Source: Branchiostoma floridae
Lineage: Eukaryota; Chordata; Leptocardii; Amphioxiformes; Branchiostomatidae
NCBI RefSeq assembly: GCF_000003815.2
Contig: NC_049982.1
Location: 32,316,739-32,380,738, forward strand
Length of the DNA: 64,000 bases
Direction: 5' to 3'
Within the stretch, counting starts at the first letter, position 1. Each line of letters begins with the position of its first letter. Below the pieces are notes generated by a model. The model was not told the DNA's origin. It ran no database searches and worked only from the letters and a program-made list of their open reading frames with translations. The translations under genes were made by a program, and so were the position numbers. Shown one piece after another: positions 1 to 47,100 of this stretch.

Positions 1-1167
1 ATTTAGTTTCCATACGAATAGTGTCTCTGAGAAAACTGTGGGCCTGCGTGTGGTCCTATGTTTAGCCATATGCATTTCATCCTTCCGAACATAATTTCAT
101 CAGGTTGGTACAATATAGGAGAAGTCTTTTTGCACAACCTACTTTACATACGTAAACGAAACATTACTGCCTGGTTGTGTAAAAAGAATTTTCCTATGTC
201 CCATTTGATCCTTCTTTGCGCAACTTTATTTCGTGCGCTTAACCAACCTAGTCTCTACCAGACTCCGGGTCGCTGGAAAATCGTAAGAATGGAATAAATG
301 GAGGAGGTCGCGCGCTGTTCCCTAGCCGACTATACTCCTCTGGCCGGCTTACTCCTCTTCAATTTCTACGATTTTCAAGCGACCCGGAGTCTGGTAGAGA
401 CTACAACCAACCCCGCTCTCGTTAAATTTCGAACTGTCCCCTTTACTAAATACATTATCCTTGCTTGACTTCCTAGAACCAATCATCCTACGGTTCCTAG
501 ATGAAAGGAAACTATGGAAATCTGATCTAGATGTGGAAATGTGATCTAGATTTCCATTTGTGTAAAATGTCCTTGTCTATATCAAGGTCATCGCTATGTT
601 TAGGTTCATAGGTCAAACAGCCACTTATACCAGGCGGCCGTGCGCAGTGGGCTATTATTACGTCGCATATGCCGCCAGTGTACAGAGTGACGAAAATAAT
701 TGGTCGCTTTTCGACAAGGAATTATGTTATTCAGTGAAGCACACCACCTTAATCCGTACCGACGATCTTTATTCAAAAGGAGCGAACAGCAGATCAACAT
801 GTGGTGATGTGTTTTTGACCCGGAATCTCAGGGATTTCAGGTGAATATTGCGGATTTAACCAGTCTGACACGTCGTGTAACAGTTTGGGATGTTGACATC
901 TCTTGGCAGACGATTTTGGAGAGATTCTGCGACCGTGAGTGGCCCGCTTGGTTTTCATCAAGCAGGGAATTCGACAACAGATTTCGCAGACAGGATTTGA
1001 CCTCCGAGCTCATCAGATATTCCAGTCCACGGCTGGTGCGTGGGTGTCCCGTCTTCTTGGTGTTAGGCGTCTGGAAGCAAGGAGAAGGAGAGGATAACAA
1101 AGTTATCCCAACTCGTTTATGTTTGGGCGTTGGGTCGATTGGAAATCAAACTTGCCCTCACAACAAC
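1..1167. other. Upstream region of the SLC10-like gene
   Basis: No gene is supported here. The reading frame of the SLC10-like first exon is open back to about 841 but has no earlier ATG in frame, so the part just before 1168 is probably 5' untranslated sequence. A short inverted-repeat transposon lies at 249-404. The other open frames here show no recognisable family. Confidence 0.5.
249..404. mobile_element. Short TIR element (MITE), 156 bp, with 8-bp target duplication
   Basis: The ends are inverted copies: TAGTCTCTACCAGACTCCGG at the left and its reverse complement at the right, continuing through the GGGTCGCTGGAAAATCGTA region with small mismatches. The same 8 bases, aaccaacc, flank it at 241-248 and 405-412. 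An 8-bp duplication is typical of hAT-type insertion. There is no internal coding capacity. The inner GGCCGGCTATACTCCTC-like segment resembles the elements near 21.1 kb and 22.6 kb. Confidence 0.75.
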
Positions 1168-4100
1168 ATGTCTGCCGACGGACGTGCACTTGACGGCCCC
1201 TTCACGAACCAGACTGGGAACGAGACGGTGGTAAACAACACTGGCAGTTGGTTGAACCCGTTACTCATCGACCCCAGGGTAAACCTGACCATGAACATAT
1301 GGATGAGCGTGTTTGTTGTCATCATGATGCTCTCTCTCGGTTGTACCATGGAGTATCACGTCGTGCTTCAGCACATCAAGAAACCGTTCGGCATGTTTAT
1401 CGGTTTCTTGGCGCAGTTTGTGATCATGCCCGCGCTGGCTTACGGGATGGTTCACGCGGTGGACCTGGAGGGCCTGTCGGCGCTGGTCGTGCTCATCCTG
1501 GGGTGCTGTCCGGGCGGGAAGGTGTCCAACATCTTGGCTCTCTTGGCGGCGGGAGACATGAATCTGAGGTAACGTTACAGGAATTATCGAATTATCTTCT
1601 TCTTGTTCTTGCGTGTTTTTGCATCTACTAATGTCCTGGACACGCTATGGTCTTAGTGGCAGTCAGATAGAAGTGGTGTAGCGGGTTTGGGCCCCCTTGC
1701 AGCTTGCTCTGGAACTACGGAAGTGTGTTTAATCAAAGTGCAACTGAACAAAGCAACAACGGATTTCCATGATATTTCGTAAGTAGGTATCTTAGACAAA
1801 GATTACACAATGCAATGAAAATCATGAATTAGTTTGCATGATTACTGAGGAAATTGTATAATTTCAGTGGTATTCACAATAGAAATTTCATAATCTAACG
1901 TATGCCATTCATAGCAATTGAAACATAAACAGATTATGCAAATAATATCATAATTTGTATAATAGATGTGAACGTGTCATACTTTCTTAATGGTTAAAAT
2001 GAGAATTGAATACTTGTCACATGCGTAAGTCAGGTGTGCATGACTATGCATAGATTATGACTTATGAAGGTCATGATCATGCTGAAATATAAACAAGGAA
2101 GTCTGGCGCCGGCAACGGAAAGGACATCTGCATATATAATATATGTGATTCTGATGGAGAAGACCATCATTTACAACAAACTATGCTAATTACACATTAT
2201 TTAGCAGTTAATGTGACAAGATGAAACAATAAGTCTACAAAGCCTCTTGATATCTTACGGAGGTACGAGGTCTCCGTACTCTTGCTTTAAATGCTTTTGA
2301 CGTGTAGAAGGAGCTCTTGTTTTTACTTGAAAGGGATACTGTTTTTTTCTCAAATCTCCGACGTTCAAACCCTGTGCATAATTGTGGTCGTGAACACTGG
2401 TCCCTTGTGAACATTGGAAATGTTCGTCATACATTGTTTATTAACTTATCTCTCCGCGATGATGTTGGATCTGAAATAATCACTTTGAGTTCCCTTTACC
2501 TAAGAAACTTTAGGATCGGAAAATTTGATATTGATGCGTAAAAAATGCGAGCTGACATGAACCAAAGAGCCTTGTATCGGCATGAAACTTACTCCCAAAG
2601 TCAATTTGCGCCACAGCCGAATTTTCTCAACATCATAACCTTTTGAATTAACGTTATGTCCTACTTGAGTCCTACTCCATAAAATGTGTCCATAATAACG
2701 CTGGTACTACATACAAAACACGGGGAATGAAACTGTGCATGTCACGATATCTACATGTAATTACGATAAATCCATTGGAAATGTGCCCGGCAAAATACAG
2801 AAAATAGCATTTCTGTCGGGTTGAAACTTCCCTAAGCTTCAGTATTCTTGTGCCTTTTAAGAGTACTTGAGTCACTTGGTAGTAACTAGGCACTTGCAGA
2901 TACATTATATTTTCACGGTACATATGTATTTTTGTATTTCTGATCTCCGAGTATCCTTTCATCCCCCAGTATCTGCATGACCGTGTGTTCCACCACGTTA
3001 GCGATGGGCATGATGCCGCTGTGCCTGTGGTTGTACGGGCGAAACCTGACCGACTCGCAGACCGTCATCCCGTACGACTCCATCGGCATCACCCTGGTCT
3101 GTATCATCGTACCTGTCGCCATCGGCGTCTACATCAAGTACCGGTCAGATAGGGCCGCCAAGATCATCCTCAGGGTAGGACAATTTGAAAATCTTACAAT
3201 TTGTTTCTTTTTGTTTACTTTTACCTCGTTTTCTTTTTTTCGTCATGACGTCACAGCTACATTTCATCGGCAATCGATGTCGTTTTATAGGGTACCAACT
3301 TCGTTAACGTTCGGACTTCCAACGCGGGGAGCGACCTGGACTTAAAAAAACATGAAAGAAATTTTTGGATACCATGGTAGCCAGGCCAGCGTTAATTCTG
3401 TTTTGGACGATTTTCCCGTATGCTAGGTTTGCCAAAGCAAAGTCTTGGTAGGCTTGAAATTACAAAAGCATATTAAGGACATTCTTGGGTATGGAACAGG
3501 TTGCCGTAATTCCTAATATTCTAAAAGAAAATTAGAATATTACTCACTGAAAATCCCGCATGCAGTGAATTTTACCGCGCACGAAATGCACAAGTGACGC
3601 TAGGATGGCAGTTGTATGAATAGTGCCAGTACTGGCAGTAGGGTGAAAATATTTACATTGATCAGGTCCCGGGTGGAATTTCGGTCATTTAAGTTCTTTG
3701 TAATGTCACCTTTTTCATTCTACCTTCTTCTCGCCGTCTAGTTCTGTACAACAAAGTTCATTGTAATCCTTTTCTTCACAGGTAGGCGGCGTGATTGTAC
3801 TCCTACAGTTGGTGATCGGCATGTGCATCGCCGTGTTCCTGTGGGGGATCGACAGGCTGCTGTCCATCCCGCGGAGCCTGATCGTGGTGGCCGTGGTCAT
3901 GCCGTTCTGCGGCTACGTGCTCGGCTACATCATGGCCTCCATCTTCCGTCTCCCTCACAACTGCCGCCGGACCGTCTCCATGGAGACGGGATGCCAGAAC
4001 TCCGGACTCTGCATGTCCATCCTCAAGCTCTCGTTCCCAGTGGAGGACGTCGGCACGGTGTTCTTCTTCCCACCGCTGTTCGCCATTTTCCAGACGGTGG

Positions 4101-4168
4101 AAGCCTTGATTTCATCGTCCTGTACCACGTTTGGGCACGATAATGCGGGAAGGAGAAGGGGGACCTGA
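1168..4168 (+). CDS. SLC10 family sodium/bile acid cotransporter (ASBT/SLC10A2-like)
   Basis: Three exons: 1168-1568, 2970-3174 and 3782-4168. Phases 2 then 0 fit at each junction and give a complete 330-residue protein; human SLC10A1 and SLC10A2 are about 350. The family imports bile acids or other organic anions together with sodium across the plasma membrane. The N-terminus carries several N-glycosylation sequons (NQT, NET, NNT, NLT), followed by hydrophobic membrane segments. Family landmarks are MLSLGCTMEY, GCCPGG (about residues 112-117), CSTTLAMGMMPLCL, VIPYDSIG and METGCQN (about 269-275), a motif close to the sodium and substrate sites. HIKKP, VVLILGCCPGG and VIPYD are closer to SLC10A2 than SLC10A1 as I recall them. 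The start is the first in-frame ATG. The C-terminal tail is short and basic. It is convergent with COG8. Substrate cannot be told from sequence. Confidence 0.92.
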
Positions 4169-6360: not shown

Positions 6361-6983
6361 TCACTGCCTTGGTATGTCTTCTCCCATTTCCTCCTCACCA
6401 AATTCTGCAACTGATTGTTGAGGCAGGTCTGTAGGTGGTAAACTGCTTGTACTACTGTCCAATGGCTGCTGAGTATCACTGATGGTTGCCATGGCAACAT
6501 TGGTTTGATTTGCAGGCCTGTCCTGGTCACTGGTGTCAGGTGGTGGGATGGACTCAACTGGAGGTGCTGTAACAGATGCTGTTGCCTCTGGTGTTGCCTC
6601 TGGTGCTGAATCTGAGGATCTGGAGGTTGTATCTGATGGTGTTGTATTTGATGGTGTTGTATCTGATGGTGTTGTATCTGATGGTGTTGCATCTGATGGT
6701 GTTGCATCTGATGGTGTTGCATTTGATGGTGCTGTATCGTGTGTTGTATCAGAGGCTGCAGCAGCTGGTGTATCTAGGGATGTTGTTTTCATCATTCCTG
6801 TATCTGAGGTTGCTGTATCTGAAGATGTTGTATCCGTGGTAGTTGCTGTATCTAGGGGTGCTGTAGCTGGAGTTGCAGGCTCTATTACACCTCCAGTAGA
6901 TGTTACAGTCTCCCCTGCCACTGATGCTTGCCTGTCCTGTCCAATGCCTGCTAGATTAGCTGCCTTGGTGCTTTCTGACATCT
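6361..6983 (-). CDS. COG8: COG8 terminal exon: Thr/Ser/Asp-rich repetitive tail
   Basis: This exon enters in phase 1 after an attacAG acceptor and ends with TGA at 6361-6363. It encodes about 207 residues. They start [12 protein letters not shown] and contain runs such as [16 protein letters not shown], then about nine five-residue units of the type [10 protein letters not shown] (15-bp DNA unit, about 6610-6740), and end in an acidic segment with GEEEMGED. Human COG8 has a shorter, non-repetitive acidic tail here. The tail is low complexity, probably disordered and open to O-glycosylation-like or phosphorylation events, but no function can be assigned. The frame continues smoothly from the preceding exon, so I regard it as truly coding. 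Confidence 0.8.
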
Positions 6984-9900
6984 CTGTAATAAAAAATACA
7001 TCAGGTATAAGGAGCTGTGGTGAAATGCTTAGTCCCTACAACACATATTCATTCAAACCTAGCACTATCAATCCATTCAAACTTCAATAGTTATTCTGAT
7101 AATTGGAGCTTGAATAGATGCCAAATATCTAAATAAAACTGAAGGTTTCCTTCTTCCAATACTACACCTACCTTCTAAAGTGTCTTATTTGTTCAAAATC
7201 TTGTTTGTCAACATATTGCTTTGCTTTGACTCATTATAGTAGCTACCAAAAACATCATACTTCATACTACATCATCATACACTCTCGATACACAAAAAAC
7301 ACTATAAATACACGATCTATGTCATTTTATTGTTCACACAACTGACTTAGTATCCTCCAGATCCTCTGTAAGCTAAAACAAATTTGCCAAATTCGGAGAA
7401 TATACCTACCAGAGAATTTGGCTACATCTGGCACTGTACCGTAAGTAGGAAATGGAACAAAATGAAAGGTTTCCATTTTGCTCAATTTTGTACTTGTGAG
7501 ACACCCATATCTATGGCTACATCTGCCTATTTTCTCACCTGGTATGTCCGTGATGAGAAGGCTGGTTAGACCCGTAGTGTCCACTGTCCTGACTGGTAAC
7601 AGGTCCTATAGGGACACCCATATCTGGCTATGACTATCTAATATCTGCCTCCAGTCTTACCTGGTATGTCCGTGATGAGAAGGCTGGTTAGACCCGTAGT
7701 GTCCACTGTCCTGACTGGTAACAGGTCCTATAGGGACACCCATATCTGGCTATGACTATCTAATATCTGCCTCCAGTCTTACCTGGTATGTCCGTGATGA
7801 GAAGGCTGGTTAGACCTGTGGTGTCCACTGTCCTGACTGGTAACAGGTCCTGTAGGGACACCCATATCTGGCTATGACTATCTAATATCTGCCTCCAGTC
7901 TCACCTGGTATGTCAGTGATGAGAAGGCTGGTCAGACCTGTGGTGTCCACTGTCCTGACTGGTAACAGGTCCTGTAGGGACACCCATATCTGGCTATGAC
8001 TATCTAATATCTGCCTCCAGTCTCACCTGGTATGTCAGTGATGAGAAGGCTGGTTAGACCTGTAGTGTCCACTGTCCTGACTGGTAACAGGTCCTGTAGG
8101 GACACCCATATCTGGCTATGACTATCTAATATCTGCCTCCAGTCTCACCTGGTATGTCAGTGATGAGAAGGCTGGTTAGACCTGTAGTGTCCACTGTCCT
8201 GACTGGTAACACCTGTCCTGTAGGGACACCCATATCTGGCTATGACTATCTAATATCTGCCTCCAGTCTCACCTGGTATGTCCGTGATGAGAAGGCTGGT
8301 CAGACCTGTGGTGTCCACTGTCCTGACAGGTAACAGGTCCTGTAGGGACACCCATATCTGGCTATGACTATCTAATATCTGCCTCCAGTCTCACCTGGTA
8401 TGTCAGTGATGAGAAGGCTGGTTAGACCTGTAGTGTCCACTGTCCTGACTGGTAACAGGTCCTGTAGGGACACCCATATCTGGCTATGACTATCTAATAT
8501 CTGCCTCCAGTCTCACCTGGTATGTCAGTGATGAGAAGGCTGGTTAGACCTGTAGTGTCCACTGTCCTGACTGGTAACAGGTCCTGTAGGGACACCCATA
8601 TCTGGCTATGACTATCTAATATCTGCCTCCAGTCTCACCTGGTATGTCTGTGATGAGAAGGCTGGTCAGACCTGTGGTGTCCACTGTCCTGACTGGTAAC
8701 AGGTCCTGTAGGGACACCCATATCTGGCTATGACTATCTATCTAATATCTGCCTCCAGTCTCACCTGGTATGTCCGTGATGAGAAGGCTGGTAAGACCTG
8801 TGGTGTCCACTGTCCTGACTGGTAACAGGTCCTGTAGGGGCTGGGTCACAGTCTCCACATCCACAGCACACACTGACAACTGGAGTTATGAAATTGGTAC
8901 CTTTAAAGTGTTTCTGACACAAATGTATGTATTTGTCTGATTACATTCAATAAGGCCTCAGCAAGTAAATTTTAAGGATGACATCAGCGTGTTCATTAAT
9001 TTCTGCCTGATTTCAGAAAAAAATTTTTTTTTTCCTCTTCAGGGATGGTCAGATAGACCAAAATAGGCAAACATGTTGTGTTGTAGCCTGATAATCATAC
9101 TTGTAAAAGTGACACTAGCTAGGTAGCCATGACTATAGTTGCAGAAGTAAAACTTACTTATTGGATAGTTGTAAAAGTGCCATCAATATGGAAGTCATGC
9201 ATGAGTGTTGCCAGCTTGGCAAGTTATACCAGTGTACCACACCAGTATCACTTTTACTACATTAGATCTAGTTTACTTTTTTAATACAGAAATGAATGCC
9301 TTGTTGTGAGGCCACGTTTTGTCTCTTCAAATCTCGTTACGACGTTTATGGTGTCTATTTTGAAAATTTATCTTGTTTTTTTTACCCATCTTGTTTCTTT
9401 TCGTGCTATCTCATTATTCTTTGCACTCTGCATATGATGTCATCCATAAAATTTACTTGCTGTGGTCTCACAATAGAAACAAGGCCATTAATCTGCTTCT
9501 GCATGCACAATCTTGGTCTTCATTACTTTCAACTGTGTTACTTTGCATAGAATGGTTAGTTTTAAAAAAAAATATAAAAAGAAGTCAACCTTTGTGACAT
9601 CAGCAGTGGACACTCCTAGCACCTGCGCTACAGCTGCAGCTGGATACATCACCTGCAGGCAGGTGTTGGCGAAGGGCACCAGGCTGTCGGCAAAACTGGA
9701 GCACAGGCGGCCAAACAGCTCGCGCTCACTGGGCGACATTGCTGACTCTTCTGCCCTGGAACGCGAGGAGAAGACATTATGGTCATGTAATGCTTGAGAC
9801 TGCCTGGCCTAATGCTACAGCAATGGTAGCATTGAACCATAGGTGTAACAAGCTTAGTGGCTATCAGTGGAGAAGGTAGCCTTATATGTAGTAACCTTTC

Positions 9901-12900: not shown

Positions 12901-15900
12901 TCTGGTACTTTGGCACATTATATTGAAGAGGTACATGTAAAATTCTTTACCACAGCTAAAATGGGCTCGTGTGCACTTTTGTGCACCCAAAATAGGAGCT
13001 ATTCTTTTTTTACTGTTGTTGCACCGGTGCAGGTAGATATTTGAGCAGGGTTGTGTACCTGATGGTACTATTGTACATTGGCATCATCATAATCACTATA
13101 CACAGCATATAACATTCTTGATATTCAAGAGTCAGAAAAAATAGGGAAATTGTAAGGTTGTTTGTAACTACAGTAGGTCTTGTAACATTCTACTTTATTC
13201 TTATGTTGTGCACTAAAATTCATATCTGTGCACTTGAGTTTTGAGCCCTGTCCAACCACGTCCTGAACGACCAGTTAACACATCTCCATACAAACCATGA
13301 TGACAGGGATGTTAGAGTGTTTCTTCTCCAGTCTGCTGACGTGAGCAGCCAGCTCCAGGGCCTCCTCATAGTAACCATTCCGCACACATGTGTCCATCAG
13401 CTGCGGAAAACAAACAAACAAACAAACTTCAATACATTCCTGTTAACAATCCTGAACATATCTGATCAAACACATTCAAGCTATACTTGGACATACACCA
13501 GGGCTCTAGCCAGCGTCCGTTTTTCCGTCAATTGACGGAAATTTGCTGCATGTGACAGAAATTTTTTTTAACCAATCCGTCAACCTTGACGGACAAAAAT
13601 TCTTGGTGGAAGCTACAGGTGGCTTGGGGACGCCGTCCACGGCCGTAAAAGCCACACACTGTTTGTTTTGCTATCGTTATGATTGTTGAAAATGTGTGTC
13701 GGCTCCCTTTTGCATACGATAATCTCATTAAAAACCCATTTTTCAAGGTCTCAGTTCCGTCTTTCTAACTTTATTTTCGCGGTTTTCCCGACAATGGGAA
13801 TTGGCTGACGGAAAAAATTTCGATCTGGCTAGAGCCCTGACATACACATACTAGTATATAACATTGTATAGTCTTCTCACTGTACCAGTCAGGGTATATT
13901 CAACTTTGTTTATGGAAATAAATGTGTACAAGGAATATATGTTATAAGAAAATGGTAAATCTAAGGTCTGCATTATCTTCAATAAAAAGTACTAGTACTC
14001 TATATTGCTATAAAGTATAAACTACTAAGCAAATTTAGGGGAGCACATGAATTTTGAATTTGAGGCAAACAGTATCTCCCAGCATAACAAATGTCTGATA
14101 TGCCTAAATGGGAGGGTTACATGACCTCTCTAGTACAGTGTAGTACAGTGTGGTTGCAATAAACTACTATATATAGACTCATTCACACTTTCTTGAATCA
14201 CTGCTATTAACTGCCTGCCTCAAGAGTCGACATTAATGGCATGTAAAACATGCTAGACATACTTGAAATAGTTGAACTGTAATTTCCAACACCAAAATTG
14301 GACTCACCCAAATTTTCGACTGCGACTGCAACATTTTGGTGTTGGAAATTACAGTTCAACTATTTCAAGAATGACTTCTACCAACACAGATGAACTTTCA
14401 AGTTAATGCTAGACATACGTTCAATCTTCAATGCATTTATATGTGTGCACATCATCATGTTAAAATGTTGACAATGACAGATTTGACATGCATTCTCCCT
14501 GTAATGCAAGCAAGTTTTGGTGATCCACATGTTAATGTTAATGTCTAATTTGCATACATGGGAAATTAACATTTCCTATGTATAAGTTACCTACCTGTGG
14601 CATCTCCAGTATCTCCAGTACTAGTAGTTGTGTGTGGTGTGCCAGGGTGAGGGAGTTCAAGCGTCGCCTGGTGTTGATGTCCTGGGCATGCTTCAGGAAA
14701 CCCTGACACTTCTCTCCAAACAATAATAAAATAGCCCATATTTGCATACATGGGACATTAACATCCCTTATATACAAATTACCTACCTGTGGCATCTCTA
14801 GAATCTCCAGTAGCTGTGTGTGGTGTGCCAGGGTGAGGGAGTTCATGCGTCTCCTGGTGTTGATGTCCTGGGCGTGCTTCAGGAAACCCTGACACTTCTC
14901 ACCAAACACAGGCAGCTTCTCCAGGAGATTCTCAAGACGTTCCTCCACCAGGCTGAAGTCCTCGAAGATGTCTTGGGAACATTCTGCTGTCTGTAGGGCG
15001 GGTGTAACGAAAATGTAATTTACATATGGTATGGGTCAGACTACTGTCAGTACTGGTGCAATAGCCTATGTACAAGGAGTACAAGAGGGTCATATCAAGA
15101 TTCAAAGACTTAAGATAAATGCATGGTAAATACTTCTTTCCCTGCTTAGCACTCAGAATTTAAATGCCAATATACAGTACACAGCAATTTTTTTATGGAT
15201 GACTGCCTGCTCATAAATTTTTGCCTGATTTCAGAAAAAACAAAAACTTTTTTTTTTGGTCAAAGATGGTCAACATAACAAGAAAGTACTAGTACCAAAT
15301 TACAATGTAAGAATATATATGGGTGGTTATAATGTTAACGTTAATGTTAAGTCCGAGGTGAAGGGGCCGGGGTCACGGAGAAAACTGCGAACATACAACC
15401 AAAACGAAAATTTCAACTTCAAGAATATTCAGGCATTTGCCATGGGCTGTGTTTTAACAAAACACGGATCAATGCGGCTTTCTGGAAAAGTTAGGTTAGG
15501 TACATAAGGCCTAGGAAACAAAATGTTGTGTTTCCTGTTTCAGTCCTGAAAAAATTAGGGTCGGTAGGTAGGGATTATCTTTTTTTTTTTCTTGTATTTT
15601 TTTTTAGGCTGGCCAAAATTCTAGTGATACATATTTATAATACAGTTGAACAAAGTAAACTGAAATGTATGATGACACTTGTCTTTCAATGTCAAACTTT
15701 AATTTTGTGCATGATAGATACATTTATCCTTCATTAGATGGGACAAGCAGTGTTTTACTTCAATAGGAAGCAGGCTAAATAAAAATTCTAACTGGAAGCT
15801 ATGTGACTCCACTGCCCACCCCAAAAAAATGTCTAGGATCGGCAGGTTTTTTTAGGGTAGGTAGGGAAACAGGAAACACATCATTTTTTTTCCTAGGCCT

Positions 15901-25900: not shown

Positions 25901-28900
25901 GAACAGTTTGATTGTTCCCGGATCATTTGATCAAGCTACCCGCACACAATACATATACCATTGAGCTCTCCACTGAGGCGTCGCAAAAATAGGCATACCC
26001 CTGAGGCGTCGCCAAAAATGACAAGAACAAAAAGACGAAGAAAGAAATGAGAAAAATACAAGAAAAACAATATGTTTTCCCTTTCAACGCATTTAGTATA
26101 TTAACATTTTAAAGAACAGGAGGGGGCGATATCGACTTCCATTCCAACAACTTTGACCAATTGCCGAAAGTCACGCGCGCATAATAAAGTCTCATTTCCA
26201 AAGCAATTGGGTCAGACTACTGGATAGGACTGAGTGATTGAGTAGAAACTGCCAGTGAGTCCATTTCATTTAGTTGCTGAACAGTTTGATTGTTCCTGGA
26301 TCATGTGATTATCAGAATTTTTTTTTCTATTTTGGACAATGTTAATGCAAGGGGACGCTAGTGTTACCAAAATGAAAACAGACCTGCAGTGGGCATCACT
26401 TGAAGACAGAAGGAAAATGTCCAGACTTTGCATGATGTACAAAATGACCAATAAACTGGTGGACGTACCGACTGATAAGTATCGGCTCAAAAAAGAACAA
26501 GAAACAGCCATGACTTCAAGTACCAGAGTTATACCAAGCTAGGATTGACGTTCAAAAACTCGTTTTTCCCAGAACTATCGTAGAGTGGAATTCGTCATCA
26601 CCAAGCACAGTAGGGGCATCTTCTTTGGATAGTTTTAAAGAACGCTTGCAGATAGATGTGCAAAAGTTAGGTGTGACTGCCGGGACAACTCGGACCATCC
26701 CCCCTGGACAGCTATTTAGTTGACTTTTTTTTCGAAAATGTAATCCCCAACACTAGTTTTATATGTATATACTCTGAAATGAGAAAACTGTAGGTTGGAT
26801 TGATTGAATTGTGTAATTCATCGGAACTTTTCGGCATTCCATGCGGCGCACATTAGGTCGTTGACCCCGAAATACGCAGTGTGTGTGGACACGTGGATAG
26901 GTGTGAGGCGCTTCTAATAGAGGACAGTAGTAAACTTTACCATTACTTGCTCTTCGGAATAGCTTTAGACAAATAAGATGTGGGTATTGATCAGCGTATG
27001 AGTCATTCTTATTGAAGATTAATTGCTAGTTAAGAATTTTTTATATCGCGGTTTTTATATCACCGGCGCCCGCGCGGCACATATGATGCTAGATGAAAGG
27101 ACCGCCACTCTGTATGACCAGGAAACTTCTGACGTTCTAATAGTAGCAGCTGGAGACAATCTTTATAATACTAGACAGTAGTACAAATGTACCAAGAAAT
27201 GTCAAATTAACTTTTTTTCAAAAGATAAGTAATTTGGTCCGACTGGTACCTGGGGGTGGTCCGAGTTGACCAGGGGGTGGTCCGAGTTGACCAGATTTTC
27301 AATGGGCCGAGTTAGTAATGGTCCGAGTTGTCCTGATTCCGTGTGACAGGTCGTTCAGTGTAATATAACCAGATGCTGCCGCGCCGCGTGCCTGCGAAGC
27401 TGGTGTGTTACGCCAAAGGGCGGTTATACCGGCTATATAGATATAGATACAAGAAATTGGACAAATCTTCGACCACGCCTCTGGACACTGAAAAACACTT
27501 TGTCTTGAGAGCAGCCAGGACGACGTACGATCACGTATCCTTGAACCGAGACGGTGGTCGGTACCGACTTAACTTCCAACCATACCGCACGTGACCTTAT
27601 GCTCACGTCACACTTTCAGAAGGGGACGTCTCCCGAGTAATCGGATAATGAAGAAGATCGAACCTTTTGTCTCATTTATAAATTTATTGTTTTGGAATCT
27701 AGTGAAATCCTGACCTCCATATACCCAAAAGGTATACTTTGTTGTCTCTTCTTTCTTGAGGTCTAGTTTTTCTGTATTGAGGTCTAGTTTTTCTGTACTA
27801 GATAAATTAAACCGAGGACGTTTGTATAAAAGAATAAGCCAAGCTTCTTCGGTAGGAATCTGACGTGGTAATATGTTTTTCCCTAGGAAAGCCAAGTGTG
27901 GCGTTAACGAATACGTTCTTTGACCTCGTGGGAAGGAGTGACTGTGTGTCATTCTGGGTACAAGAACCGTACCTGCGCTGTGTGTATGTGACAGACACAG
28001 GTTGGTGATCAATAATTTTGTTATCATTAAGTTTTTTTTTATCTTCATCACGACGATTAGTTGATGCGGAAGAATTGAATGTGATTGTGGAAAAGCATCA
28101 CAAGAGACAGGGACGGGCGCCACACGTTGACAAGTTTGAGAAGGCCCTATCCTTCTGTGCAGACCTTTAAGGAACGGGCGCGCGGCTGGTTTACTTTTTC
28201 GGAAAGCAATAAATTGCGATGCTTAACCCTACAACCAGAGTAACCCTGAAACTGAGGGGCACATTACACTAACATTGTCCAGCAATATTTTCTGCAAATA
28301 GCTCTTCGTGTATATCACTATTTTGATATTTCAAAATAAGCCGTTGGAGCATCTTAGAGAAGTATCTTCAAGCAGATGTACATGGTGATGCAAACCATCA
28401 TAACGGTACATCTGCTTTAAACCATCAAAATTAACCAGATTGTTCTGCATCCCAGCTGACTACAGAGGAACCATGCAGCAGTGTTACCACAGCTCATGCG
28501 ACAACGTCACCAGCATCACTCCAGACAAGCTGACCTTCCTGGCCAAGGTCACGGACTCCATACTGCAGACGACTATGAAACTGGCTGAGGTCGAAAAGGA
28601 CACTTGCACTGACACTACTGGTGATGCGGATACTACTGGGGGTAAGGATACTACTGAGGGTATAGACACTACAGAGGGTACGGATACTACTGGGGGTACG
28701 GACACTACTGGGGGTACGGACACTACTGGGGTGTGGACACTAGTGGGGGTACAGACACTATTGGGAGCACGGACAGTACTGACTTCCTTGACTTAATCCT
28801 CTTTGCCCCTTCTGGAGCACAGGGCCTCGGTGAGATGCCTCCACCTTCCTCGGTCTTTGGCGGTTGTCTTAGCCTCATGCCACGAGGTTTTTGCATGTTG

Positions 28901-30497
28901 TAGGTCCTTCATGACTCCTCGCCTCCAGGACAGCCTAGGTCTTCCTCTACGTCTTTTGCCTTGGGGGTTCCATTCTAGGACTGCCCTCGTAATGGATGGT
29001 GGGGGTTTTCTTAGTGTGTGTCCAATCCACCTCCATTTCCTGCGCCTTATGGTGACCTCCACAGGTTCTTGGCCAGTTCTCTCCAGGAGGTCATGGTTGC
29101 TGATCTTATTTGGCCACCAAATGCCAAGGATGTAGCGGAGTCTTACATTGATGAAGGTTTGGAGTTTCTTAATGTTGGCTTGTGTTAGGCCCCAGGTTTC
29201 ACAGCCATATAGTAGGATGGACTTGACATTAGATTCAAAGATACGTAGCTTTGTTCTGAGGGAGATGTTCCTGGCCCTCCAAACTGGTCTTAGTTGGACA
29301 AAGGCAGCCTTTCCCTTCCCTATGCGGGCTTCCACGTCCTTTGTCGCACCTCCGTCACTGCTGATGACACTGCCAAGGTATGTGAATTCCTTCACTGTCT
29401 CCAGCTCTATTCCTCTGCAGCACACGGGTTTGGCATTCCCCACTGTCTTCACCCTCATCTCTTTAGTTTTTCCTGCGTTGATGATTAGTCCCAGTTGGCC
29501 TGACTTGTGTTCTAACCTCTGGGTCTTCTCTCTCATCTGGCTGATGGTATGGCACAGAAGAGCAAGGTCGTCCGCGAAGTCTAAGTCATCTAACATGTCC
29601 GTCAATGTCCACTGAATTCCTGTCCTGGCATCTTTGGTAGTTTCCCTCATCACCCAGTCCAGTGCAGTTATAAATAGCAGCGGGCTCAAGAGGCACCCCT
29701 GTCGCACTCCGGTGGTCATGTTGAAGGGCTCTGTCAAATCGGACAGTACTGGGGGTACAGATACTAATGTGGGTACGGTCACTACTGGGGTACGGTCACT
29801 ACTGGGGTACAGTCACTACTGGGGTACGGACACTACTGGGGGTACAGACACTATTGGGAGCACGGACACTACAGGGGGTACTGACACTACTGGGGGCATG
29901 GATACTAATGGGTATGGACACTACTCAGGGTGCGGACACTAGTGGGGTGTGGACACTAGTGGGGGTACAGGCACTATTGGGAGCACGGACAGTACTAGGG
30001 GTACAGTTACTAATGGGGGTACGGTCACTACTGGGGTACGGTCACTACTGGGTATGGACACTACTGGGGGTACAGACACTATTGGGAGCACGGACACTAC
30101 AGGGGGTACTGACACTACTGGGGGCATGGATACTACTGGGTATGGACACTACTGGGGCCCGGGTACGGACACTTCACAGGGTAAGGACACTACTGGGGTA
30201 CGGATACTAGTGGGGGTTCAGACACTATTGGGAGCACGGACAGTACAGGGGGTACTGAGACTACTGGGGTACGGACACTAGTGGGGGGAAGGAGTCACAC
30301 TACTCGGACATGGACACTACTGAGAAATTATTCAACATCATGACCTTTTTGATATAAATTTCTTTCCTGTTTCTGTTGGTTCAGTGACAAGTGCTGCAAG
30401 AGATTCCCACGGAGCATGGTCCATCATACAGCTGCTGAGTGTTCATGTCTGGATCTGGTCCATCTTACAGTACAGCTGTGCTGTACACATCATCTAG
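19920..30497 (+). CDS. Secreted M28-family zinc peptidase, possibly GPI-anchored
   Basis: Nine exons fit together in phase: 19920-19977, 22881-23071, 23383-23491, 24064-24177, 24927-25132, 25554-25728, 27887-28000, 28456-28641 and 30385-30497 (421 residues). M28 enzymes are two-zinc aminopeptidases or carboxypeptidases. Exon 1 encodes a hydrophobic signal-like start, MGSCVIVQWSFVALLWLQIG. Family landmarks are GAHYDT (His111), GVDDDGSG (Asp123), FDNEE (Glu156 as the likely general base, Glu157 as ligand), the Glu of LETIMNYD (about 204) and CYHSSCD (His334). These match the expected zinc ligands, so the enzyme looks active. The last exon encodes a hydrophobic C-terminus rich in W, I, L and V with no basic tail, as in GPI-attachment signals. 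Exon 1 and the last exon rest on phase and context and are less certain than the middle seven. Substrate is unknown. Confidence 0.85.
20591..20745. mobile_element. Near-perfect palindromic MITE with 9-bp target duplication
   Basis: Two arms of about 70 bp, beginning TACTCTCCAAGCAGAGGTTG and mirrored at the right end, enclose a loop of about 15 bases with only one or two mismatches. The 9 bases tgcgaaggg flank it at 20582-20590 and 20746-20754. A 9-bp duplication is typical of Mutator-like elements. It lies in intron 1 of the M28 gene. Confidence 0.85.
21020..21120. mobile_element. Degenerate TIR element related to the one at 22499
   Basis: Segments TAGCCGGCTATACTCC and GATACTATCTTATGGCACC resemble the element at 22499-22649. 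A reversed TATAGTATCAAA segment at the left gives a short inverted repeat. It lies in intron 1 of the M28 gene. Confidence 0.5.
22499..22649. mobile_element. TIR element with GATAGT-rich ends
   Basis: The left segment CATAAGATAGTGTCAAAGCT followed by GGAGTATAGCCGGCC is mirrored at the right by GGCCGGCTATACTCCTC and AGCTTTTGATACTATCTTAT. About 150 bp, non-coding, in intron 1 of the M28 gene, about 230 bp before exon 2. Confidence 0.7.
25930..26310. repeat. Intronic repetitive sequence
   Basis: A segment AAGCTACCCGCACACAATAC resembles sequence near 50090-50115 and, inverted, near 53775-53835. Two local near-copies of ATAGGACTGAGTGATTGAG occur at about 25846 and 26224. No coding sequence is seen. 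Confidence 0.45.
26339..26720 (+). mobile_element. 3' fragment of a non-LTR retrotransposon (CR1/L2-like)
   Basis: A 67-codon frame has the pattern seen at the end of LINE open frames: LQWASLEDRRKMSRL, then CMMYKMTNKLVDVP. After a frameshift it continues with NSFFPRTIVEWNS and a SLDSFKERL-type end. It is heavily 5'-truncated and broken, in the intron between M28 exons 25554-25728 and 27887-28000. Confidence 0.65.
27398..27455 (+). repeat. Dispersed repeat, GCTGGTGTGTTACGCC family, copy 1
   Basis: GCTGGTGTGTTACGCCAAAG followed by GGCGGTTATA and AGATACA recurs at 51029-51085 and 60263-60325. It lies within the long intron before M28 exon 7. Confidence 0.6.
28610..28781 (+). repeat. 18-bp minisatellite, left part
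   Basis: Units of about 18 bp, ggtacggacactactggg, begin within M28 exon 8 and encode D-T-T-G-G-T if read through. They continue past the putative donor GGG|GTAAGG at 28642. Units of other lengths follow, so the frame is soon lost. The array is interrupted at 28782 by a LINE and resumes at 29740. Confidence 0.9.
28782..29739 (-). mobile_element. 5'-truncated RTE-like LINE inserted in the minisatellite
   Basis: The minus strand encodes the C-terminal part of a reverse transcriptase, open for about 310 codons. It has TGVRQGCLLSPLLF, the FADDLALL catalytic box, GLIINAGKTKEM, EFTYLGSVIS, LLYGCETWGL and a C-terminal WRHLTEALCSRRGKED, ending TAA about a dozen bases before the insert edge. The endonuclease and the N-terminal half are missing. 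The same 12 bases, cggacagtactg, flank the insert at 28770-28781 and 29740-29751. The frame is intact over its whole visible length, so insertion is probably recent. Confidence 0.92.
29740..30310 (+). repeat. 18-bp minisatellite, right part
   Basis: About thirty variant units of 15-18 bp (ggtacggacactactggg type) continue from the LINE edge to about 30310. Many are 17 bp, so no long open frame in the peptidase sense survives; the long Leu/Gly frames here are products of the repeat. The last M28 exon follows at 30385. Confidence 0.9.
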
Positions 30498-44100: not shown

Positions 44101-47100
44101 TATCATAAAGAGCGCACACACAGTACACCAACCTGCTCTGGAGTTAAGGAGGCTAAGGTGACAGAGTCAGCTGTAGAACCCATCTCAGCACAGCCCAGGG
44201 TTCTCAGGGTGTTCTTCCAGCACAGAGGACTCAACTCTTTACTATCTGAACCTGAGACATAGCAGAAATGTTATAAAAATGCTCAATGTATTGATTTATG
44301 CAAGAGTCTTCTGAATCGTTATCGAGCATCTATAGTTAATGTAACTTCCAAATTCAAAAGAGCAATTGCGGGTTTGGGGGGCTTGGGCTGTCCAATATAC
44401 ATGACTGTATATCCTTATATTCTACTCAACTTTGATATGGACATGATAAGGGTTGTTGGTCTTTGATATGACTAGTAGATAAAAGGAAAACATGACAATG
44501 TTACATGTTTGAACCTAAAAAAATGAACCAAAGTAGCAAAAAGTGCAATGCCTAGATGATGACATGTTCTGTGTTAATCAAGCTACACAAACATGGTGCC
44601 CAAATAATCATCTTTAAACAAGTCGAGTGAAAATGTTCAGTGGCAACTTCTACATAATACATGTAGTCTATTTAGGGATAGATGGATGGTGGTTTTAAAT
44701 TGTAATGTTTTCAATACTGCAACTTGAAACCACCGTCCATCGACGTGACACCCTTAAATACACAGTTTTTAAAAACAATGGATATAGGTTACCCCGCGGA
44801 TACAGGTGAACTAGCATTCAGCGGAAGGTCGGTTATATGGGAGCTATGTCCAGTATCAGGGTGAAGTGCACGAAGTTAGGGTGTACGAAGTTGTACGAAG
44901 TTGTACGAAGTTACAACCGTTTCCCATTGGCTTTGATGCTATATTGGGAGTCACATATGACGTCAATTCATTTATTGGATGATGTAATCTAACTTTGTAC
45001 AATAGGCAGGGTAGGGTGGCAAGTGTACGAAGTTGTCCGATGTTCTGCAAAGTTACGTGACGTCATCTAACTTCGTACAGTAGGCAGGGTAGGGCGGCAT
45101 GTGTACGAAGTTGTCCTAAGTTGTGCAAAGTTACGTGACGTCATCTAACTTTGTACAGTAGGCAGGGTAGGGCGGCATGTGTACGAAGTTGTCCGAAGTT
45201 GTGCAAAGTTACGTGACGTCATCTAACTTCGCACAGTAGGCAGGGTAGGGTGGCATGTGTACGAAGTTGTCCGAAGTTGTGCAAAGTTGGGTGATGTTAT
45301 TTTATCTCGGTCCAAAATTACTTAATGTACATAGTGCTAGTTATCGAAAGCTTCAATCATAAAATAAACACAACATACACGCACATACACATCTGCGTTT
45401 TGAATATTATGTCTTACAATGCCCACTTCTTATCATGTTCACTTTTAGAAGTCGGAAAGTAATTAACCTGCTTTTTTTACACCAATTGCACCATGTTAAA
45501 AAATGTTCGTACAGATTTCTTGACTTCCAATATTGTTTAAGTAACTTCATCAATTGTTATAGTAGTAGGGCACAGTTTCTGCCCGCAGTGCGCCGGCAGT
45601 GCGCCGCTGGTTTAGATAACAGCTACGATAACTGGCATATAGTCCCCTATGCCTCTCACCTTTCTGTTGTGTCGTAAAAATAATTCCAACATCTTCTTCT
45701 GCTTCCGCGAAACAGCGCGAACAATATCAGGACAACTGTTGTTTTCGCCGTCAAGGACCTTCCCTAGATAACGTTAATTGTCAATATCAGTTCGCGGACG
45801 AAGTCGTGGCAAGAATCTGAGTGGCGCCTCACCGGGGTCATTTCTCTTCCCAGCAAAACTCATTCTACTCCTCTCAGGATATTTATTGGGTGGACGGTGG
45901 TATAAGGATACCTCTTGTAATGTAAGAAGCATTCTATTGCTTGTTGCTATGAGCAAGCGTACTTCCATAGAAATATAAAGAACTTGGCAGTTAGGTTCGA
46001 GAACCATTTTTTTCGAATTCGAATTCAAGTTCGAACAGTCAAAGGGAAATAGACATGTGAAGCCTAATAGTACGATTTCACAGTCGCAGCTATTTGCACA
46101 TTACATAGAGTTTTCAGAAGTTGCATTAATCTAGGTATGTTTCTTCATATCTATTGGTTATGATAGACATAAACCTTAAAGTTGAAGGTCTTCTCTTGCG
46201 ACAGAACTCTATTATAAAGTTTATTAGGAGAACTTCATGTCAAATAAAGAGATGCAAATAAATATCAACGTTAACCACCATCCTGATTAAGACAAAAGAC
46301 AAGTAAAATTTGTACAACTTCGTAAACCTGTTGACACATTCCTACTGGCTGTAAAAAGTTTGGAGACGTCATGGTTAAGATGACGTCATAACTTTGTTCA
46401 ACTTCGGACAACTTCGTACACCACCCGGCTGACTGTCCAAAGTTAGGATGACATAATGGTTAGGATGACGTCATAACTTCGGACAACTTCGGACACCACT
46501 TGGCTGACTGTCCAAAGTTAGGATGACGTAATGGTTATGATGACGTCATAACTTTGGACAACTTCGGACAACTTCGTACACCACCCGGCTGACTGTCCAA
46601 AGTTAGGATGACGTAATGTTTAAGATGACGTTATAACTTTGGACAACTTCGGACAACTTTGGACAACTTCTGCCATCTAACATAACTTAGGACAACTTCG
46701 TGCAATTCACCCTGATACTGGACATGGGTGTTATATGGGCTATATAGATACAGATAATAGACATGATGTTGTCTTACCTTGCAGTAGAACCTGCAGCACA
46801 TCTCCAAAATGATCAGGAAAACTGTACTTCAACATGCTCTGTAGATGGCTCTGATACACCTGCATATAGACATAGGGTACATCAGTCATGTAAGAGCCAA
46901 ATCATGGTAAGCCTTTATGTATTCACTAGGGCCAACATGGCAACACCTTTTAGGTCTAAAACTCAACAGTTTGCCACCTCATACATCCCAAGACTCATTA
47001 GTATTTGGAATGGGCTAGATGGGAACCTGAGAGCCATGGGCCGCTGTGTCTCTCAGTCCTCACACATATCCACCTTCAAACGACAGTTGTTAAAACACCT

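What the first reader, a model, noticed from the sequence alone, without database searches (positions are those of the whole stretch)
7505..8879. Eleven-fold tandem array of a COG8 mini-exon with splice-like borders
Seen: on the minus strand, 122-bp units each hold 67 bases of COG8 coding sequence followed by a GTGAGA/GTAAGA donor-like site, and are preceded by a CCCTACAG or CCCTATAG acceptor-like site. In the true exon the same CCCTACAG bases are coding (P-L-Q). A coding segment therefore appears to have become an acceptor in the copies. Sixty-seven is not a multiple of three. By my reading, a second cassette leaves the terminal exon out of frame and a third meets a stop. Inference: the array could be a splice decoy, a source of NMD-sensitive or truncated COG8 isoforms that differ in the tail, or a neutral minisatellite that happens to carry an exon.
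Basis: partly seen in the sequence, partly recalled or inferred. Interest (0 to 1): 0.75.

Follow-up and report, generated by a model that had tools for sequence, protein, structure and literature searches.

The report
Exon-edge minisatellite in lancelet COG8
In a lancelet, the end of one COG8 exon and the start of its intron have been copied in tandem ten extra times; this looks like a new example of a repeat type already known from lancelets ('mirage' minisatellites), most likely just spliced out.

Summary
On the minus strand, COG8 exon 10 (8879-8765) is followed by ten extra copies of a ~122-bp unit: 75 nt of the exon's 3' part, the donor and intron start (47 nt). A search of the 513-Mb genome holding the window found one match, itself. 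It fits the published 'mirage', a minisatellite spanning an exon-intron boundary, reported in amphioxus Adh, globin, troponin C and PGBD5 genes. By the same method I found a globin array with the reported BflGb6 anatomy, a second COG8 mirage at exon 2, and one in an ADAMTS-like gene in a small sample. Best reading: a neutral array in intron 10, skipped in splicing. None of the 4 lancelet COG8 proteins found repeats the exon-10 segment. The copies' acceptor side is poorer in pyrimidines than 9 of 9 real COG8 acceptors checked. New: copy U5 alone would keep the frame (+23 aa), and differences among copies are mostly synonymous here and in the globin array but not in the ADAMTS-like one, hinting at exchange with the coding copy. 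No RNA data were available.

The parts
8765..8879 (-). COG8 exon 10 (true exon; phase 0 start, phase 1 end); its last 75 nt (8839-8765) are the exon part of unit U0
   Evidence: gene model with matching phases; protein alignment
8714..8839 (-). unit U0, 126 bp, includes true donor and a private 4-nt repeat in its intron part
8592..8713 (-). unit U1
8470..8591 (-). unit U2
8348..8469 (-). unit U3
8226..8347 (-). unit U4
8102..8225 (-). unit U5, 124 bp; exon part 69 nt after the acceptor-like site; only copy whose single inclusion keeps the frame
7980..8101 (-). unit U6
7858..7979 (-). unit U7
7736..7857 (-). unit U8 (donor GTAAGA)
7614..7735 (-). unit U9 (donor GTAAGA, acceptor-like CCCTATAG)
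7500..7613 (-). unit U10, last copy; exon part identical to U9, intron part diverged and shorter, continuing into unique intron
6361..6983 (-). COG8 terminal exon 11 (acceptor of the intron that contains the array; stop codon ends at 6361)
9590..9755 (-). COG8 exon 9
14787..14990 (-). COG8 exon 2, source of a second mirage
14595..14711 (-). exon-2 copy (in frame, two extra codons), second mirage of the same gene, TRF period 186 bp at 14548-14908

Best explanation
A tandem duplication in a Branchiostoma genome (B. floridae by its COG8 protein, inferred) had one breakpoint inside COG8 exon 10 and the other 47-48 nt into intron 10, with a 1-nt (C) overlap at the join. It put the exon's 3' end plus donor plus intron start into the intron, and unequal exchange amplified it to 11 units, including a three-unit pattern. 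Shown: anatomy, frame arithmetic, a single genome match, the variant pattern. Inferred: the spliceosome pairs exon 10's own acceptor with the first donor (U0) and joins it to exon 11, so all extra copies leave with the intron. They are skipped because each has a good donor but a pyrimidine-poor acceptor side, and neighbouring copies are only 55 nt apart. Inferred, less certain: the copies still exchange sequence with U0, so variants among them are mostly synonymous. It is a neutral 'mirage' minisatellite; no function is needed.
For: Unit anatomy spans an exon-intron boundary. Published amphioxus mirages have the same anatomy, units from 10 bp to about 160 bp and variable copy number, and the Adh3 and globin cases are reported not to interfere with regular splicing. 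My method finds, in this genome, a globin array with the published BflGb6 anatomy: 3 copies plus the real exon, ~158 bp. Other mirages here: COG8 exon 2 and an ADAMTS-like gene, 1 of the 7 arrays I inspected by eye out of 9 with period 50 or more in 163,780 readable sampled bases. 0 of 4 lancelet COG8 proteins found (8 member sequences in their clusters) repeat the exon-10 segment. Pyrimidine content at -20 to -4 is 0.47 in 10 of 10 extra copies versus 0.59-0.82 in 9 real COG8 acceptors. 1022 of 1023 ordered subsets of copies would destroy the normal C-terminus. Variants: 5 of 7 substitution sites in 72 in-frame bases are synonymous (neutral expectation about 0.31; P 0.03 by sites, 0.005 by minimum events, 7 of 9).
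Against: No transcript data, and the database proteins may rest on automated models and stand for clusters at 90% identity, so a minor isoform could be hidden. Each extra copy keeps a donor and an AG acceptor, which is also what a functional cassette would look like. Pyrimidine content is a crude measure and the gap to the weakest real acceptor is small (0.47 against 0.59). For the exchange part: the test is post hoc with few sites; U9 and U10 carry a nonsense change and U5 a frameshift; the ADAMTS-like mirage shows no synonymous excess between its copies (0 of 7); and a young array seeded from several coding alleles would look the same.
Confidence: 0.85

Rival explanations
1. The copies act as a splice decoy or give rare isoforms: one copy is sometimes included, truncating the protein after exon 10 and removing the roughly 200-residue Ser/Thr/Pro-rich tail, or with U5 adding 23 residues in frame.
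For: All ten extra copies keep AG and GT sites; U5 alone keeps the frame and repeats the native peptide; the exon-2 copy is in frame and one database protein, P0002, holds a 37-residue duplicate at that place, though its two stretches are identical and lack the changes of the window's copy.
Against: Acceptor side poor in pyrimidines; 0 of 4 lancelet proteins repeat the exon-10 segment; Adh3 and globin mirages are reported not to interfere with splicing; the PGBD5 paper excluded a similar model-predicted repeat exon that had no EST or mRNA support.
Confidence: 0.08
2. Copy number or order is an assembly artefact (merged haplotypes or mis-sized repeat) of a shorter real array. Not exclusive of the best explanation.
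For: The PGBD5 paper reports different repeat numbers for the same locus in two sequence versions, and the globin paper an aberrantly assembled array; a three-unit pattern U1-U3/U4-U6/U7 could be joined haplotypes.
Against: Units differ in private variants (U0, U1, U4, U5, U10) and no N gap interrupts the array; the anatomy itself would remain.
Confidence: 0.15
3. A regulated NMD switch: inclusion of copies lowers COG8 protein.
For: Two or three copies give stops more than 50 nt upstream of the last junction in 22 of 45 pairs and 117 of 120 triples.
Against: Single inclusion never does; multi-copy inclusion of neighbours would need 55-nt introns, against 529-2025 nt for the seven COG8 introns measured.
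Confidence: 0.02

Closest known systems
Amphioxus 'mirage' minisatellites in globin genes BflGb6 and BflGb9 (PMC3087553; passages read)
   Same: Tandem duplications spanning an exon-intron boundary, units 150-160 bp, AG/GT signals in many copies, copy number differs between haplotypes of BflGb6, reported not to interfere with regular splicing; BflGb9 duplicates a 3' exon boundary as here.
   Different: BflGb6 duplicates an intron's 3' end plus the exon's 5' part and has 6 and 3 repeat units in its two haplotypes; the COG8 array duplicates the exon's 3' part plus donor and has 10 extra units.
Adh3 mirages of B. floridae and B. lanceolatum (Canestro et al. 2002; paper not held, known here only through PMC3087553 and PMC3902484)
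   Same: Same definition; length instability, somatic instability reported.
   Different: Units 10-72 bp; instability was not testable here.
PGBD5 60-bp and 108-bp repeats in lancelet (PMC3902484; passages read)
   Same: Repeats include splice sites; a gene model included a repeat-derived exon without EST or mRNA support.
   Different: Imperfect repeats, 2 to 7 copies depending on the sequence version.
Internal tandem repeats in human duplicated genes (PMC2812944; title, abstract line and section list only)
   Same: Minisatellites that alter gene structure.
   Different: Human paralogs; details not read.

Membership tests
amphioxus mirage minisatellite | repeat unit spans an exon-intron boundary of a real gene | tested here: met
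   exon 10 3' part + donor + intron start in each unit
amphioxus mirage minisatellite | tandem minisatellite-like array | tested here: met
   10.7 copies, 122 bp
amphioxus mirage minisatellite | cephalochordate genome | tested here: met
   COG8 nearest to Branchiostoma proteins P0001-P0004
amphioxus mirage minisatellite | does not disturb normal splicing | tested here: inconclusive
   0 of 4 lancelet proteins repeat the segment, but no RNA data
amphioxus mirage minisatellite | length instability between alleles or tissues | not testable with these tools
   one haplotype only; single match found in the genome
tandemly duplicated (mutually exclusive or cassette) exons | copies carry complete acceptor regions and are used in mRNA | tested here: inconclusive
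   copies begin inside the exon and lack its real acceptor; pyrimidine-poor; usage not testable
tandemly duplicated (mutually exclusive or cassette) exons | copy length keeps the reading frame | tested here: not met
   67 nt in 9 of 10 extra copies; only U5 (69 nt) keeps frame

The most novel reading that the evidence does not exclude
Intronic mirage copies in lancelets are in continuing sequence exchange with the coding exon edge. The array then acts as a store of protein-neutral alleles that can be moved back into the coding position, and selection on the coding unit shapes sequence that is never translated. In COG8 one copy (U5) has also reached a length that could enter the mRNA in frame.
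Probability: 0.3. Interest if true: 0.5.

Novelty: new member of a known kind. Interest (0 to 1): 0.27.

Why it matters
It adds COG8, twice, to the few described lancelet mirages, with more extra units than the globin (6 and 3) and PGBD5 (up to 7) cases I could read, and suggests such arrays are not rare in this genome (one more among 7 arrays inspected in a 163,780-base sample). They are a natural test of how the spliceosome ignores good donors, of exon-edge duplication as a route to new introns or exons, and of whether coding and non-coding repeats exchange sequence.

Tried and rejected
Exon 10 starting at CCCTACAG|GACC (67-nt exon): possible in frame, rejected as the main form because all four lancelet proteins contain the preceding [14 protein letters not shown] segment. 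Solved-structure search gave 0 matches. Pfam on four single-exon peptides gave one hit; protein 2 of that call was a wrong-frame reading with its stops left out and tests nothing. Exon-versus-intron divergence as a general test of constraint: not significant for COG8 exon 2 (P 0.13) nor between the ADAMTS-like copies M1 and M2 (P 0.78), significant only where the coding copy M0 takes part (P 0.004, 0.02). There the fourth, decayed copy M3 was aligned but left out of the counts. In the array sample, one search listed 24 arrays of period 40 or more outside the window, 9 of them of period 50 or more; I inspected 7 of those 9 by eye from open frames and left out two more in L017. The other window arrays (18-bp, 78-bp, 85-bp) were not examined for overlap with exons.

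Papers: PMC3087553 and PMC3902484 read as passages; PMC2812944 as title, abstract line and section list; Canestro 2002 not held (with a recalled and wrong DOI, with the right PMC number). No paper with COG8 and amphioxus in the held library (0 papers).

Full report
What is there. The window lies in a 513-Mb genome (contig C4, 32316739-32380738). The COG8 protein it encodes, without exon 7, is about 98% identical to P0001, a COG8 from B. floridae x B. japonicum; tail residues shared with P0002 point to Branchiostoma floridae (inference from the alignment). COG8 is on the minus strand. I placed exons 1-6 and 8-11 with fitting phases; exon 7 lies in an N gap and exon 5 runs into one. Exon 10 is 8879-8765, starts in phase 0 and ends in phase 1; exon 11 starts at 6983 and its stop codon ends at 6361. 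Intron 10 is 1781 nt.

The array. Eleven units, U0 to U10, run from 8839 to about 7500. Each holds CCCTACAG or CCCTATAG, 67 exon bases (69 in U5) and, from the donor (GTGAGA or GTAAGA) on, 47 intron bases (51 in U0, 38 in U10 up to the same point). U0 is the true exon edge; ten are extra. The junction joins intron ...gtgtc to exon ccctacag with a single shared C, and the intron runs on past U10 as gtgtctcacaag, so a simple tandem duplication with one breakpoint in the exon explains the anatomy. U1-U7 show a three-unit order (ACC-CTG, ACT-CTA, ACT-CTA, repeated); U10 has an exon part identical to U9 but a diverged intron part: ordinary array turnover with diverged edges (inference; the globin paper describes edges escaping homogenisation). 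A DNA search of the whole genome found one match, the window itself; that tool warns that it scores only the best candidates.

Frame. One extra copy: out of frame into exon 11 with a stop after nine residues in 5 of 10, a stop inside the copy in 4 of 10, and in frame with 23 added residues in 1 of 10, U5. Of 1023 ordered subsets of the ten copies, one (U5 alone) keeps the normal C-terminus. Read-through of the first donor stops after seven more residues. So the normal protein requires that the copies be spliced out.

Are copies used? The protein search listed the best 120 of 1143 matches, four of them named as lancelet (P0001-P0004, standing for 8 member sequences). None repeats the exon-10 segment. 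They may be automated models, so a minor isoform could be hidden. P0002 contains a 37-residue duplicate of part of exon 2, at the place of the second mirage of this gene (14711-14595 in the window), but without the changes of the window's copy, and it also lacks other segments; I read it as a gene-model effect, since the PGBD5 paper describes a repeat exon predicted without EST or mRNA support. The acceptor side of all ten extra copies has pyrimidine content 0.47 at -20 to -4; nine real COG8 acceptors range from 0.59 to 0.82; U0's internal CCCTACAG has 0.65. This is a crude measure. Neighbouring copies are 55 nt apart; the seven COG8 introns measured are 529-2025 nt. This favours skipping but is no proof.

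Known kind. Amphioxus 'mirages' are tandem repeats spanning exon-intron boundaries, reported in Adh3, globins, PGBD5 and troponin C. As a control, a globin family search of the own genome gave nine matches and loci; one, L030, holds a 158-bp array of 4.2 copies made of intron 3' end plus exon 5' part, which fits the published BflGb6 (identity with BflGb6 inferred from anatomy); the other eight show no array of period 40 or more. In 20 fetched stretches of 10 kb, 163,780 bases readable, there were 9 arrays of period 50 or more outside the window. I inspected 7 of them by eye; one, L019:7102, duplicates a 3' exon edge plus donor in an ADAMTS-like gene (Pfam ADAMTS_CR_3, E 2.5e-5). Arrays of this class are therefore not rare here; the rate is only rough.

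Pattern of variation. In the 72 in-frame exon bases of the COG8 array, seven sites vary: five are synonymous; one is a nonsense change (U9, U10) and one is part of U5's complex change. With a neutral expectation of about 0.31, P is 0.03 by sites and 0.005 by minimum events (7 of 9). Third positions vary at 5 of 24, all other exon positions and the intron part of U0-U9 at 3 of 95 (Fisher P 0.008; U10's diverged intron part and U0's 4-nt repeat left out). In the globin array the two distinct non-coding copies differ by 8 synonymous and 2 non-synonymous changes over the 22 codons before a frameshift in one of them (P 0.0002). The single COG8 exon-2 copy differs from the exon by 6 and 2 (P 0.005), a comparison that includes the coding copy and leaves out an in-frame insertion. 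In the ADAMTS-like array the two copies compared differ by 0 and 7, and from the coding copy by 1 and 3, and 1 and 5 (all). The pattern is thus mixed. Where present it suggests that variants arose in, or pass through, the coding position. A young array seeded from several coding alleles would look the same.

Verdict. A real and neat array, but a new member of a known lancelet class, most likely spliced out and neutral.

Noticed in passing
window 14548-14990 (-): Second mirage in the same gene: exon 2 of COG8 with one extra in-frame copy (186-bp period); database protein P0002 carries a duplicated 37-residue stretch of this exon.
   Followed up: yes
L019:7102-7650: Mirage in an ADAMTS-like gene: four copies of an exon 3' edge plus donor region, decayed, with a stop in one copy.
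   Followed up: partly
L030:954-1601: Globin-gene array of 158 bp that fits the published BflGb6 mirage; three copies plus the real exon in this assembly.
   Followed up: yes
window 6626-6750 (-): 15-bp coding minisatellite in COG8 exon 11 (Ser/Asp/Thr/Pro repeat) in a stretch whose length differs between lancelet proteins.
   Followed up: partly
window 28793-29812 (-): Reverse-transcriptase-like open frame (named from memory of such motifs, no search run) flanked by 18-bp repeat arrays at 28611-28781 and 29740-30287.
   Followed up: no
window 44980-45288 and 46355-46659: Two arrays of 78 and 85 bp with related cores (TGTACGAAGT, AACTTCGTAC/AACTTCGGAC); function not looked at.
   Followed up: no
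window 808-4168 (+): Open frames that look like a bile-acid/sodium cotransporter (recalled resemblance, no search run).
   Followed up: no
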